A stretch of 23,671 nt of DNA from a virus. This document shows, one piece after another, positions 1,753 to 22,483 of the stretch (position 1 is its first letter; every line of letters begins with the position of its first letter). The notes under the pieces are model-generated. The model made no database searches. It was not told the origin of the DNA and saw only the letters and a program-made list of their open reading frames with translations. The stretch lies in IMG/VR virus record IMGVR_UViG_3300002144_000875, positions 1-23,671 of that record; one strand, given 5' to 3'. The translations under genes and the position numbers were made by a program.

Positions 1753-1763
1753 ATATTTATAAC
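1753..1763 (+). promoter_or_regulatory. ATATTTATAAC motif, copy 1
   Basis: This is the first of three exact copies of an 11-base motif, all in intergenic gaps. It ends four bases before the ATG at 1768, so if it is a promoter box the transcript from it could not carry that start in the usual way, and a processing or antisense role must be considered. The core TATTTATA is the reverse complement of the T4 late promoter box TATAAATA. Confidence 0.35.
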
Positions 1764-9483: not shown

Positions 9484-12165
9484 ATGGATGATAAAATATT
9501 ATATATAAAAGTTAGTAAAATTGATGGTGATGGTGTTGATCAAACATTCACATTACAAACTCTACAACAAATTACAATCCCTTGGGGAGCTGGAAATAGT
9601 ACTGAAACCTTTGAAATCTTCTCGATTACGGAATTTCAAGACCATTTTTTATATGGGGTAAATCCTAACAATGTGTTAGACCCTGTAACTGTAACTAATG
9701 ATAGAGCTAAAATAGAATATGATTTTTCAAGTTCTGTGCAATTACAAAGTGATGGAACTGTAGTACCTATTTTATTCTCAGGAGATGTTGAATTATACAA
9801 GATGTCTAATGCTGCTGTTGTTCAATCTATCCCCTTAATTAATACTGTTACTGATAATTTAGGCTTTTATGTACCTACTTCTTCTAATGGATTTTTAACT
9901 CATATAGAAGGAACTAATCCTGATGGTGCTTATTATCAAGTAAATACTTACCCACAAAAATCTACTGAAATTAATTTTTCAGGATCTTTCCTTTTAGATG
10001 TAGTTTGGACAGCTAATACATCTACTCAAATTATTTTAAGTTTAATTGTTAAGAGACAAAATGGCACTAATATACTACCCACAAATCTTGGTATAACCTC
10101 AGGATATGATATTTTAAATTTTAACTCTTCTTCAGGAACTTCTTTTACATCTAGTTTTCATTTATCTATGTCTTATGGTGAAAGCTCAGTTTCAGATGTA
10201 GAAGCGCTCCCAGATGATAAACTTTTTGCTTATATTGTCCCCGTAGCTACTAATGTAGAAATTACTGGTTCCTTCTCCCCAGACACTTTCTTTAATATAT
10301 CCTCATCTGCAGCAAGTGGTCCCTCAATTGAAACTATCCCCGAACCCTTTCTATCTGAAAATTTCTCAAATGCCTTTGATTGTCAACCTTTATATGGTAA
10401 TGTAAGTGAAAATCAAACAAGTTATAAATGGATGAAAGTAGATCACACTACTGGAATAATGATTCCAATTAACTTTGATTTAATTATAAATGGGGGTGCT
10501 TTAAAAGCTCAAGTACAAGACTCTAATTATTCCTCTTTAGCACATATCACCCCAAGATATTTAGGTTCTAAAAATACATCAAGATTCTTAAATGTCTGGA
10601 ACCCACCTGAATTATCTTCCCCACCAAATACCCCAGGGAATGAAGGAAACTATGGTAAGACCCCTTCAGTTGATTCTAAAAAAACTATAGTAACATGGGC
10701 TTCTTTCACTTCAGGATGGGCACCTGAAAAGATGAATCGTTCTAAAGTTAAAATAAAATATTTAATTGATGAAACTGGAAAAGCTCTTACTCCAAATGCC
10801 TCAAGTACTGCTTTAGATGATGTTCAAAATATCTTTAGAAGTGGAGAAAATGTTATTTTAACTTCCTATGAAACTGCAAACCCTTCTTCCTTTACTAATG
10901 TTTCAAGAATAGTAGATAGAGGAGGAACAACTATTGAACCTATATTATATAATCAGGTAAGCCATTATCAAGACCCTAATACTCCTATGTCTTTCTTACC
11001 ATCAATTACTATCAATGATGCATTAAATTTACCTCCTGGGATTCTTGATTTTAGATCACATATACAAACTACAACCCAAACTACCCAAAATATAAACGTT
11101 TCATCTCAATGGACAAATATCACATTATTTAATGATATAATTTTTAAAGGTAGCTCAGCTGGTGGTTCAGTAACTACAGGAGGTAATTCCATTACAATCC
11201 CCTCAGGTTTAGATAATTTTAATGGGGATGTAACTTTTAAAGTAAGAGTTAATATTGCAAATACAAATACTAGTAATTTTAGTACTGCTTATTTTAGAAT
11301 ATATAACCAAACCACAGGAGTACAATTAGGAATAAATTTCGCCAACCCAGCTCCACCAGTAGCCGCAGGTTCTTCACTTCCTAGTATTTGGGGGACGCTA
11401 TGGTCTCTAGGAGGTACAGATGTTAATTCTAGTGCTGCATTTAGGTTTACAGTAGATTATAATATAACAGTCTCCCCTTCAACTCTCACCCCAGGAGATG
11501 AATATGTAGTACAAGCTTTTTTTGGGTATAACCCAGAAGATTTATTTCTTTATAGTGAAGCAACAGACACCAACAATAATATTTACTTTGGGAATAATAA
11601 AATGTATTTTAAATTAGAACAAACCCCTTTACCAACATCAGAACTTGATATAAGTGGGGGTCCTTACCCATTTTTTAATCCTATAACTACAGGATATAAT
11701 AACAGCCCATATCCAGCATTACTAATATATACTGGATCTTATGTTGGAGCTTTTGAAGATCCAAACATGAAACAAGAAGGGATTCCAGATTCTGGTTTTA
11801 ATGATATAAAATATCCTATTGAAATTAAAGTTGGTGATGAAATTAGATTTGAAGGGTATGAAGATAAAGTAGTAACAGTAATTAAAACCCTTGTAACCTC
11901 TTCATATAACCCAACCCAACCTTCACTATTTGGGGGTGTAGTAGCTATTTATGTTGATAAGGACTTAACTACCCTACCTTGGAATACTGATGAATTCTTA
12001 GTTAGACGATATGTAGATAATCCTGGTGAAATTATTATAAGTAGAGATGCTATTTTTGAATCACAAGGAGGTCCACTTTTAGTAAAACCAGATTACATAA
12101 CTAACCAATTAAACGAAAACTTAGATGACTATATCACTAATCTTACCAATAAAGGCTTGCTTTAG
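9484..12165 (+). CDS. Large tail structural protein, 893 residues
   Basis: The protein is beta-rich with high Asn, Thr and Ser and no catalytic motif, as in phage adhesins and baseplate-associated fibers. It starts MDDKILYIKVSKIDGDGVDQ. A central block at about 298-370 (YKWMKVDHTTGIMIPINFDL, AQVQDSNYSSLAHI, PRYLGSKNTSRFLN) looks like a conserved core, since it is less repetitive than its flanks. A Thr/Gly-rich region follows, and the C terminus (about 760-893) contains EIKVGDEIRFEGYEDKVVTV and ends in a helical tail, NQLNENLDDYITNLTNKGLL. A partial match to the ATATTTATAAC motif lies just before its start. The family is not recognised; tail structural function comes from composition, size and neighbours. 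Confidence 0.65.
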   Translation: MDDKILYIKVSKIDGDGVDQTFTLQTLQQITIPWGAGNSTETFEIFSITEFQDHFLYGVNPNNVLDPVTVTNDRAKIEYDFSSSVQLQSDGTVVPILFSGDVELYKMSNAAVVQSIPLINTVTDNLGFYVPTSSNGFLTHIEGTNPDGAYYQVNTYPQKSTEINFSGSFLLDVVWTANTSTQIILSLIVKRQNGTNILPTNLGITSGYDILNFNSSSGTSFTSSFHLSMSYGESSVSDVEALPDDKLFAYIVPVATNVEITGSFSPDTFFNISSSAASGPSIETIPEPFLSENFSNAFDCQPLYGNVSENQTSYKWMKVDHTTGIMIPINFDLIINGGALKAQVQDSNYSSLAHITPRYLGSKNTSRFLNVWNPPELSSPPNTPGNEGNYGKTPSVDSKKTIVTWASFTSGWAPEKMNRSKVKIKYLIDETGKALTPNASSTALDDVQNIFRSGENVILTSYETANPSSFTNVSRIVDRGGTTIEPILYNQVSHYQDPNTPMSFLPSITINDALNLPPGILDFRSHIQTTTQTTQNINVSSQWTNITLFNDIIFKGSSAGGSVTTGGNSITIPSGLDNFNGDVTFKVRVNIANTNTSNFSTAYFRIYNQTTGVQLGINFANPAPPVAAGSSLPSIWGTLWSLGGTDVNSSAAFRFTVDYNITVSPSTLTPGDEYVVQAFFGYNPEDLFLYSEATDTNNNIYFGNNKMYFKLEQTPLPTSELDISGGPYPFFNPITTGYNNSPYPALLIYTGSYVGAFEDPNMKQEGIPDSGFNDIKYPIEIKVGDEIRFEGYEDKVVTVIKTLVTSSYNPTQPSLFGGVVAIYVDKDLTTLPWNTDEFLVRRYVDNPGEIIISRDAIFESQGGPLLVKPDYITNQLNENLDDYITNLTNKGLL

Positions 12166-12167
12166 TG

Positions 12168-12178
12168 ATATTTATAAC
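12168..12178 (+). promoter_or_regulatory. ATATTTATAAC motif, copy 2
   Basis: This exact copy of the 11-base motif lies three bases after the stop of the 893-residue tail gene, in the longest gap of the window (12166-12294). It is about 60 bases upstream of the likely true N terminus of the next protein, a workable distance for a promoter. An AT-only stretch (ATATAATATAAG) follows it. Confidence 0.4.
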
Positions 12179-12216
12179 ATATAATATAAGATAAATTAAA
12201 ATATTGTTAAACTTAA

Positions 12217-12294
12217 AACCTAGAAATCATCGGATATTTAAATAACCAAGTAGTAACAGTTGATGCTATATTAACTAAAAAAGGTAGAGAACTA
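12217..12294 (+). other. In-frame, start-less N-terminal extension of the next gene
   Basis: Read in the frame of the ATG at 12295, the 78 bases after the stop at 12214-12216 encode 26 codons without a stop. Past the first few they include YLNNQVVTVDAILTKKGREL, which runs smoothly into MAKNDGSFRITQ. Many tail proteins of T4-like phages open in this style, with a short leader then 'VDAILTKKGRE'. No ATG, GTG or TTG occurs in this stretch, and no ATG occurs in any frame between 12166 and 12294. The codon where a start would be expected, before GYLNN, is ATC (12229-12231). That would make this an ATC start, a mutated ATG or an assembly error. Confidence 0.6.
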
Positions 12295-12891
12295 ATGGCC
12301 AAAAATGATGGGTCATTTAGAATCACACAATTCTCATTGAGTGATGACGAAATCGATTATACTCTATATAACCCTACCCACCCATCAGGTTCTTCATTCT
12401 ATGGAGAAGCTATAAATAATATGCCTTTACTTGAAGCATTTCCTGATGAAACACAAATCATGAAATATAAACTAGTGACCCTCCCTCGTGGAACAGCAAA
12501 ACTTCCAGTACTTGATTTAGGATATGCTGCTTTAACTTTACAACAAGGAGCATCTTTAGCAATCACTCCTCAAACTTTAAATTATTTAGGTAATGCTCAA
12601 ATATTTGAAAATAGTGGATATACAGCAACAATAGCGGATGTTAGGCTATTAGGAACATTTACGGGTGTAGGTTTAGATACTGATCCTGTAAACGCTGCAG
12701 ATTTAACTTCAACTTCTACTTTAGGAACTAATGTATCTCAAACAGTTAAAGGAACTCAAATAAATTTAAGAGCCACAACAGTTAATACTTTGTTTGGAGG
12801 AAACCCTCAAATCAGTACAACAATAACATTCGTAGGTATAGATAGTGGTGCTCGTATTACTATTCCATTAACTATAACACAAACAAATTAA
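12295..12891 (+). CDS. Phage tail-cluster structural protein, start uncertain
   Basis: From the first ATG the protein is 198 residues: MAKNDGSFRITQFSLSDDEI, then DYTLYNPTHPSGSSFYGEAI and a beta-rich body ending ITIPLTITQTN. The 'ITQFSLSDDEIDYTLYNP' stretch is one I associate with structural proteins of marine T4-like phages, but I can assign no specific function. Coding potential clearly continues upstream of this ATG to 12217, so the annotated start probably removes about 22 real residues. There are no catalytic motifs, cysteines or membrane segments. It lies between the 893-residue tail protein and a pair of paralogous structural proteins, and so belongs to the virion module. Confidence 0.7.
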   Translation: MAKNDGSFRITQFSLSDDEIDYTLYNPTHPSGSSFYGEAINNMPLLEAFPDETQIMKYKLVTLPRGTAKLPVLDLGYAALTLQQGASLAITPQTLNYLGNAQIFENSGYTATIADVRLLGTFTGVGLDTDPVNAADLTSTSTLGTNVSQTVKGTQINLRATTVNTLFGGNPQISTTITFVGIDSGARITIPLTITQTN

Positions 12892-16267: not shown

Positions 16268-16708
16268 ATGTGGTTATATAACAATACTAAAATAGAAACC
16301 TTAGAGGATTTACCCTCATATTCTTTTGGTTTTATATATATTACAACTCACCTCCCAACAGGAAAAAAATATTTGGGTAAAAAATCACTTTACCATAATG
16401 TTCGAAAGAAATTAACTAAAAAACAACTTTCAGAACAAAATGGGAGGGGAAGGAAACCAACTACCGAGATAGTTAAAAAAGTTTCTGATTGGAGGACCTA
16501 TTATGGTTCTGAGGAGTTTATTAAACAAAAAATTAAAGAAAATAAGCAAGAAGAATTTACACGAGAAATTATAAAATTTGTTGATAATAAAAAATTACTT
16601 ACGTATTTTGAGTGTAAATATCAATTTATATATAATGTGTTAGAGTCTAATGAATGGTTAAATTCAAACATATTAGGAAAGTTCTATAAAAAAGACTTGG
16701 AATCATAA
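16268..16708 (+). CDS. GIY-YIG-like endonuclease
   Basis: This 146-residue protein shows the layout of a GIY-YIG domain: GFIYI at 21-25 (the 'GIY' strand), then KYLGKK at 34-39 (the 'YIG' strand), an Arg/Lys-rich helix (VRKKLTKKQLS), DWRTYYGS at 74-81, a glutamate in YFECKYQF (E115), and a closing NILGKFYKKDL. The E115 and Asn region is consistent with the metal-binding Glu and conserved Asn of the fold. It could be a free-standing homing-type nuclease or a DNA-processing nuclease of phage replication; no intron is seen around it. It lies two bases after the fiber gene and 24 before the primase gene. Confidence 0.65.
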   Translation: MWLYNNTKIETLEDLPSYSFGFIYITTHLPTGKKYLGKKSLYHNVRKKLTKKQLSEQNGRGRKPTTEIVKKVSDWRTYYGSEEFIKQKIKENKQEEFTREIIKFVDNKKLLTYFECKYQFIYNVLESNEWLNSNILGKFYKKDLES

Positions 16709-22472: not shown

Positions 22473-22483
22473 ATATTTATAAC
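22473..22483 (+). promoter_or_regulatory. ATATTTATAAC motif, copy 3
   Basis: This exact copy of the 11-base motif lies 13 bases before the ATG at 22497 and five after the previous stop. It precedes the run of acidic, histone-like and EF-hand genes, so it could mark a separate transcription unit. Confidence 0.4.

What the first reader, a model, noticed from the sequence alone, without database searches (positions are those of the whole stretch)
12166..12300. Conserved-looking tail protein N terminus with no ATG, GTG or TTG start
Codons 12217-12294 continue the frame of the ATG at 12295 and include YLNNQVVTVDAILTKKGREL, a typical opening for this kind of T4-like tail protein. No ATG, GTG or TTG precedes it after the stop at 12214, and no ATG is found in any frame from 12166. 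The codon just before GYLNN is ATC (12229-12231), one base from ATG. Options are a true ATC start, a recent start-codon mutation, or a base error in the assembly. If the first, it would be a rare start in a gene with its own upstream motif.
Basis: partly seen in the sequence, partly recalled or inferred. Interest (0 to 1): 0.6.

Follow-up and report, generated by a model that had tools for sequence, protein, structure and literature searches.

The report
AUC-start tail gene, homing-endonuclease scar
In this phage and five related but distinct ones a conserved tail gene has lost its normal ATG start, apparently because a selfish DNA-cutting gene landed exactly there and left behind a fixed 20-base sequence in which the only possible start is ATC.

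Summary
In detail: the frame of 12217-12891 has no ATG, GTG or TTG between its upstream stop (12214) and ATG 12295. It is neither an assembly error nor a lone point mutation. Relatives begin at the codon aligned with ATC 12229; the 129 distinct loci without the insertion described below use ATG. Six distinct viruses (window, L084, L085/L087, L086, L088, L092) carry ATC inside one identical 20-mer, TAAAACCTAGAAATCATCGG. A scan of IMG/VR for this start region with a codon not ending in G returned only these. In three (L086, L088, L092) the 20-mer is the 3' end of a GIY-YIG homing endonuclease gene inserted between the 5' leader and codon 2. L084 keeps a clear endonuclease remnant; window and L085 keep the 20-mer. 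The window is therefore best read as a scar left by endonuclease loss. The ATC genes are scattered on the tail-gene tree (one clade rejected, p 4e-6), so the cassette moves between phages. Purifying selection covers the N terminus, and L085, L086 and L088 have no canonical start before residue 65, so AUC initiation is the likeliest expression route (not shown). None of 11 endonuclease-bearing alleles keeps the consensus ATGGGATATTTAAATAA held by 66 of 129 free alleles, suggesting that ATC also protects against cleavage (inferred).

The parts
9484..12165 (+). Upstream structural gene (893 aa); its stop TAG ends at 12165
   Evidence: ORF list; same gene order in L085, L086 and a gene in the same place in immuto
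12169..12177 (+). TATTTATAA, T4-type late-promoter-like site; in ATG relatives it lies about 20-35 nt before the start codon, here 51 nt
   Evidence: the match alone is not above chance, its position is conserved in relatives
12178..12200 (+). Ancestral 5' leader, alignable by eye with the leader of the closest relative L142
   Evidence: W against L142
12201..12231 (+). Scar: sequence that replaces the ancestral 'AAC ATG'; its last part is identical to the 3' end of the homing endonuclease cassette
   Evidence: the part before 12214 is only weakly similar to the endonuclease 3' end (p 0.33)
12214..12233 (+). TAAAACCTAGAAATCATCGG, identical in six distinct viruses; in HEN+ phages its TAA is the endonuclease stop codon
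12229..12231 (+). ATC at the exact position of the start codon of all relatives; inferred start codon
12229..12891 (+). Tail-cluster structural protein, 220 aa from the inferred start (MGYLNNQVVTVDAILTKKGREL...); C-terminal Ig-like beta sandwich
12295..12297 (+). First in-frame ATG (residue 23); not a start in relatives; L085, L086 and L088 have no canonical start before residue 65

Best explanation
The start codon of this phage tail gene was displaced by a mobile GIY-YIG homing endonuclease (HEN) gene. In relatives the HEN ORF sits exactly between the tail gene's late promoter plus 5' leader and its second codon, so the HEN uses the former tail-gene start. In one cassette type the HEN ends ...TAA AAC CTA GAA ATC ATC, followed by GGA TAT TTA..., so the tail gene is left with ATC where ATG used to be. 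The window is a descendant that lost the HEN ORF by deletion and kept the last ~18-30 nt of the cassette as a scar. The tail protein is still made, most likely by initiation with fMet at AUC 12229, giving the usual MGYLNN N terminus. The ATC is probably kept because the intact sequence ATGGGATATTTAAATAA is (part of) the HEN target: a changed start codon protects HEN+ and scar genomes from cutting and re-invasion. Shown: the position of the HEN, the shared 20-mer, the absence of other starts, purifying selection, and the horizontal spread. Inferred: that AUC is the initiation codon, that the window once held the HEN, and that ATC confers resistance to cleavage.
For: (1) The 20-mer TAAAACCTAGAAATCATCGG stands before the same gene in window, L084, L085/L087, L086, L088 and L092, always with C in ATC although one search left that base free. 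(2) The scan for this start region preceded by any base but G returned only these contigs. (3) In L086, L088 and L092 a HEN ORF (Pfam GIY-YIG 2e-7 and NUMOD1 for L086; GIY-YIG 2e-8 for the L092 copy, L094) ends on the TAA of the 20-mer, after the normal promoter and leader (L086, L092; L088 is cut inside the HEN). (4) L084 retains a 33-nt HEN 3' remnant (0 of 1000 shuffles as good). (5) HEN+ loci with ATG leave scars after HEN loss too (L174, L170 against L097). (6) Every non-ATG start found sits at a HEN or 20-mer locus: 5 of 11 distinct HEN+ loci (3 ATC, 2 TTG) against 0 of 129 HEN-free, scar-free loci (Fisher p 1e-6). (7) The ATC genes are not one clade (AU p 3.6e-6), so the cassette moves. 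(8) N-terminal 64 codons: W-L142 pN 0.05, pS 0.60; L085, L086, L088 against sisters Nd 3, Sd 28; codons 2-23 hold 10 invariant residues. (9) 0 of 11 HEN+ alleles match ATGGGATATTTAAATAA against 66 of 129 HEN-free (p 8e-4); HEN+ ATG alleles have 3-6 changes after the ATG, L086 and L088 differ only in the start codon.
Against: No RNA or protein data: AUC initiation is inferred by exclusion. The window's own HEN remnant upstream of the 20-mer is not significant (p 0.33; L085 p 0.13). Part of the 20-mer's identity may be recent shared ancestry: the HEN 3' ~180 nt are mostly 92-100% identical between HEN+ phages. The context of the ATC is less A-rich than that of ATG relatives, so no compensating initiation signal is visible. 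The target-site and immunity reading is post hoc, uses related sequences, and the HEN's cut site is unknown. Purifying selection may partly predate the cassette: on the window branch codons 2-23 show no polarised change at all.
Confidence: 0.72

Rival explanations
1. The start was destroyed by the insertion and deletion and the window phage makes only a truncated protein from ATG 12295 (residue 23), i.e. a decaying or hypomorphic allele.
For: ATG 12295 exists in frame in the window.
Against: Residues 2-22 hold 10 positions invariant in 39 relatives; L085, L086 and L088 lack any canonical start before residue 65 yet keep a conserved N terminus; all ATC genes that are complete in their contigs have intact frames.
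Confidence: 0.12
2. The missing AUG is supplied by RNA-level rescue: splicing or trans-splicing of a leader, or ribosome bypassing, as in T4 gene 60 next to mobA.
For: The homing endonuclease association is the same as in T4 gene 60, whose 50-nt bypassed insert lies beside mobA (PMC5009743). A conserved 20-mer at the junction would fit a splice or landing site.
Against: No Rfam intron at E <= 1 in any of six loci searched. The gap has no room for an intron core, and the junction fits neither the group I rule (5' exon ends in U, intron ends in G) nor the group II end (AY) (own knowledge). The L084 leader (75 nt) and the L085 leader between promoter and ATC contain no ATG, GTG or TTG, so bypassing has no entry.
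Confidence: 0.1
3. Assembly or sequencing error at 12231.
For: Single contig for the window; reads were not available.
Against: Same ATC in the same 20-mer in six other contigs of five distinct viruses.
Confidence: 0.01

Closest known systems
T4 mobA with gene 60/39 (homing endonuclease plus 50-nt bypass insert)
   Same: A free-standing homing endonuclease inserted at a phage gene, leaving an extra short sequence that the translation machinery must cope with and that may protect from the endonuclease (PMC5009743; insertion site in PMC2988022).
   Different: Here the endonuclease is GIY-YIG, not HNH; the insertion is at the start codon, not inside the gene; the presumed solution is AUC initiation, not ribosome bypassing.
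Free-standing GIY-YIG (Seg-type) endonucleases of T4-like phages
   Same: GIY-YIG catalytic domain, insertion between genes, use of the host gene's promoter (review PMC2988022).
   Different: Insertion replaces the start codon of the downstream gene, and in one cassette type leaves it with ATC.
Genes with AUU/AUC starts in bacteria (infC, AUU in E. coli)
   Same: Conserved near-cognate start codon (infC papers cited in PMC9845219).
   Different: Phage structural gene; the rare start arises through a mobile element, with no sign of IF3 autoregulation.

Membership tests
Free-standing GIY-YIG homing endonuclease insertion (HEN+ relatives) | GIY-YIG catalytic domain and NUMOD-type DNA-binding motifs | tested here: met
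   Pfam GIY-YIG and NUMOD1/NUMOD3 in L086, L094, L097, L098; GIY-YIG below cut-off in L097, NUMOD1 below cut-off in some
Free-standing GIY-YIG homing endonuclease insertion (HEN+ relatives) | Precise insertion relative to uninserted relatives | tested here: met
   L086 against L109, L097 against L174, L092 against L136
Free-standing GIY-YIG homing endonuclease insertion (HEN+ relatives) | Cleavage of the uninserted allele and homing | not testable with these tools
   Needs an enzyme assay; sporadic distribution on the tree agrees with it
Endonuclease-loss scar (the window) | Cassette 3' end present without the endonuclease ORF | tested here: met
   20-mer identical to the cassette end; no HEN match upstream in the window
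Endonuclease-loss scar (the window) | Recognisable remnant of the endonuclease coding sequence | tested here: inconclusive
   Significant in L084, not in the window or L085
Gene with AUC start codon | No other start possible and coding constraint upstream of the next start | tested here: met
Gene with AUC start codon | Protein N terminus or initiating ribosome mapped at AUC | not testable with these tools
   No isolate or proteome with this allele was at hand; the phage records matched that were inspected (immuto, Mel-JY01) have ATG
Group I intron | Conserved intron core / Rfam match | tested here: not met
   No intron family at E <= 1 in six loci
Ribosome-bypass element (T4 gene 60 type) | Upstream translated ORF with take-off codon | tested here: not met
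   No ATG/GTG/TTG in the L084 leader or between promoter and ATC in L085

The most novel reading that the evidence does not exclude
A homing endonuclease cassette that carries its own short translation-initiation element (UAAAACCUAGAAAUCAUCGG) which drives efficient AUC initiation of the essential downstream gene while the changed start codon makes the allele immune to cleavage, so that start codon identity becomes a homing-immunity polymorphism that persists after the endonuclease is lost.
Probability: 0.3. Interest if true: 0.82.

Novelty: new variant of a known kind. Interest (0 to 1): 0.62.

Why it matters
Conserved AUC start codons are very rare in bacteria and phages, and I found no phage structural gene reported with one in the papers searched. 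Here the cause is visible: a selfish endonuclease that targets a start codon region. The site gives a natural series (uninserted ATG, endonuclease + ATG, endonuclease + TTG, endonuclease + ATC, ATC scar) in which both questions can be tested directly: how much initiation AUC supports in Bacteroidota phages, and whether hosts of homing endonucleases escape by mutating start codons. For annotation, gene callers that allow only ATG, GTG and TTG will truncate this gene in such genomes.

Tried and rejected
Assembly error (other contigs). Group I or other known intron (Rfam). Phage-borne initiator-like tRNA: no tRNA genes in the loci (contigs incomplete). Shine-Dalgarno-type pairing: AGAAA in the 20-mer lies too close to the ATC to act as such (reasoning only). 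RNA hairpin with ATC in a tetraloop: predicted weakly in five of six, not in L092; MFE not unusual; no covariation possible in near-identical sequences. Better A-rich context compensating for ATC: not seen. Second gene copy: none in the window, L085, L087, L092 or L084 records, all of them partial. First non-ATG pattern was too strict and missed true members; replaced. Protein function: no Pfam, PHROG or PDB sequence hit; AF2 pLDDT 60, only the C-terminal half is confident, Ig-like with low TM scores. The motif is not in GTDB genomes. The genome search 'relatives' is not available for virus records.

Full report
OBSERVATION. The frame that ends at 12891 is open from 12217, right after TAA 12214-12216. 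No ATG in any frame lies between 12166 and 12294, and no in-frame ATG, GTG or TTG between 12214 and ATG 12295. All other main genes of the window have ATG, or one GTG, starts.

THE TRUE N TERMINUS. The product is a conserved protein of an immutovirus-like (Flavobacterium phage) tail cluster: tblastn hits Flavobacterium phage immuto at 71% identity over 98% of the query. In the 80 best IMG/VR relatives, the codon aligned with ATC 12229 is ATG in 79 and TTG in one. The isolates immuto and Mel-JY01 have ATGGGATA. In 39 aligned relatives ten residues before the MAKND methionine are invariant. So the gene begins at the position of ATC 12229, not at 12295.

NOT AN ERROR, NOT A LONE MUTATION. A search for AAAACCTAGAAATCATNGGATATT, with the third base of the start left free, found five more contigs, all with C; a second motif scan added L092. 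A scan for this start region preceded by any base but G found only these six. Their distinct viruses are L084, L085 (identical to L087 from a second data set), L086, L088 and L092. With the window, six distinct viruses share TAAAACCTAGAAATCATCGG exactly. A random loss of ATG would have given other codons and other surroundings.

THE MOBILE ELEMENT. In L086, L088 and L092 the 20-mer directly follows, and its TAA terminates, an ORF with GIY-YIG and NUMOD-type domains (L088 starts inside the ORF). This ORF stands after the usual promoter and leader, with its ATG where relatives have the tail gene's ATG (L086 against L109). Other phages have related endonucleases in the same place followed by ATG (L096, L097, L098, L112, L188, L210) or TTG (L062, L194/L195). 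L194 has the same TAA + 12 nt + start arrangement as the ATC type. L084 has lost the ORF but keeps 33 nt of its 3' end (0 of 1000 shuffles as good); the window and L085 keep the 20-mer, while similarity further upstream is not significant (p 0.33 and 0.13). Against its nearest relative L142, the window has about 30 nt in place of 'AAC ATG'. L174 and L170 look like deletion scars of the ATG-type cassette of L097, so loss with a scar happens at this site. The window as a scar is therefore well supported but inferred.

SPREAD. On a protein tree of the tail gene the ATC members sit in different places, mostly next to ATG sisters, and one clade is rejected (AU p 3.6e-6; L092 is only 19% complete). 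In HEN+ phages the last ~180 nt of the endonuclease plus the 20-mer are 92-100% identical in nearly all windows, while the rest is mostly 65-90%. The 3' block therefore moves by recombination, and recent common descent explains part of the identity of the 20-mer.

IS THE GENE STILL TRANSLATED? For codons 1-64, L085, L086 and L088 against their ATG sisters show 3 nonsynonymous and 28 synonymous differences in all; W against L142 has pN 0.05 and pS 0.60. Changes polarised to the ATC branches in the first 63 codons (synonymous/nonsynonymous): 3/0 (L085), 5/0 (L086), 5/0 (L088), 7/3 (W), 13/10 (L084). L085, L086 and L088 have no in-frame ATG, GTG or TTG before residue 65, and the L084 and L085 leaders have none in any frame after the promoter. 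What is left is initiation at ATC 12229 (or ATC 12226). No strong initiation context or RNA fold explains how it works well enough. In chloroplasts of Chlamydomonas AUU or AUC in place of AUG was reported to lower initiation by 10-20% (cited in PMC9845219); the E. coli measurements of all 64 codons were not available to read.

WHY ATC? Among 129 distinct HEN-free, scar-free loci 66 have exactly ATGGGATATTTAAATAA; among 11 distinct HEN+ loci none do (Fisher p 8e-4). HEN+ alleles with ATG have 3-6 changes after the ATG (p 7e-6), while L086 and L088 differ from the consensus only in the start codon. Non-ATG starts: 5 of 11 HEN+ against 0 of 129 (p 1e-6). This is what one would expect if the endonuclease recognises this stretch and HEN+ alleles must differ from it; then ATC both protects the cassette and keeps scars resistant. 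The counts are post hoc, the loci are related, and co-conversion of flanks could give a similar pattern. The T4 mobA/gene 60 case is the closest precedent: a homing endonuclease next to a short insert that may protect from it and that translation must bypass (PMC5009743).

WHAT IT IS NOT. No known intron, no bypass entry, no second copy in the partial records, no tRNA in the loci.

VERDICT. Real, explained in outline, and unusual: a conserved near-cognate start codon in a phage structural gene, created by a homing endonuclease and kept after its loss. The initiation step and the immunity function need experiments.

Noticed in passing
window 16268-16708 (+): SegE-type GIY-YIG endonuclease gene (PF19835, E 4e-24); similar ORFs follow the tail genes in L084, L085, L086 and L088. 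A different subfamily from the start-codon endonuclease.
   Followed up: no
L174 and L170, about 70 nt before the tail-gene ATG: Apparent deletion scars of the L097-type endonuclease (CCATTAAACATATAA kept) that retain ATG: endonuclease loss at this site also occurs in the ATG cassette type.
   Followed up: partly
L062 and L194/L195, tail-gene start: Tail gene starts with TTG GGC directly behind a GIY-YIG endonuclease; L194 has the same TAA + 12 nt + start arrangement as the ATC cassette.
   Followed up: partly
window 1754-1762 and 22474-22482 (+): Two further TATTTATAA sites, both in short gaps just before genes (1768, 22497); the number in the window is not above chance.
   Followed up: no
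window 12232-12498 (residues 2-90 of the tail protein): The N-terminal ~90 residues are the most conserved part of the protein, yet AF2 gives them pLDDT 30-45; they may fold only in complex with a partner.
   Followed up: no
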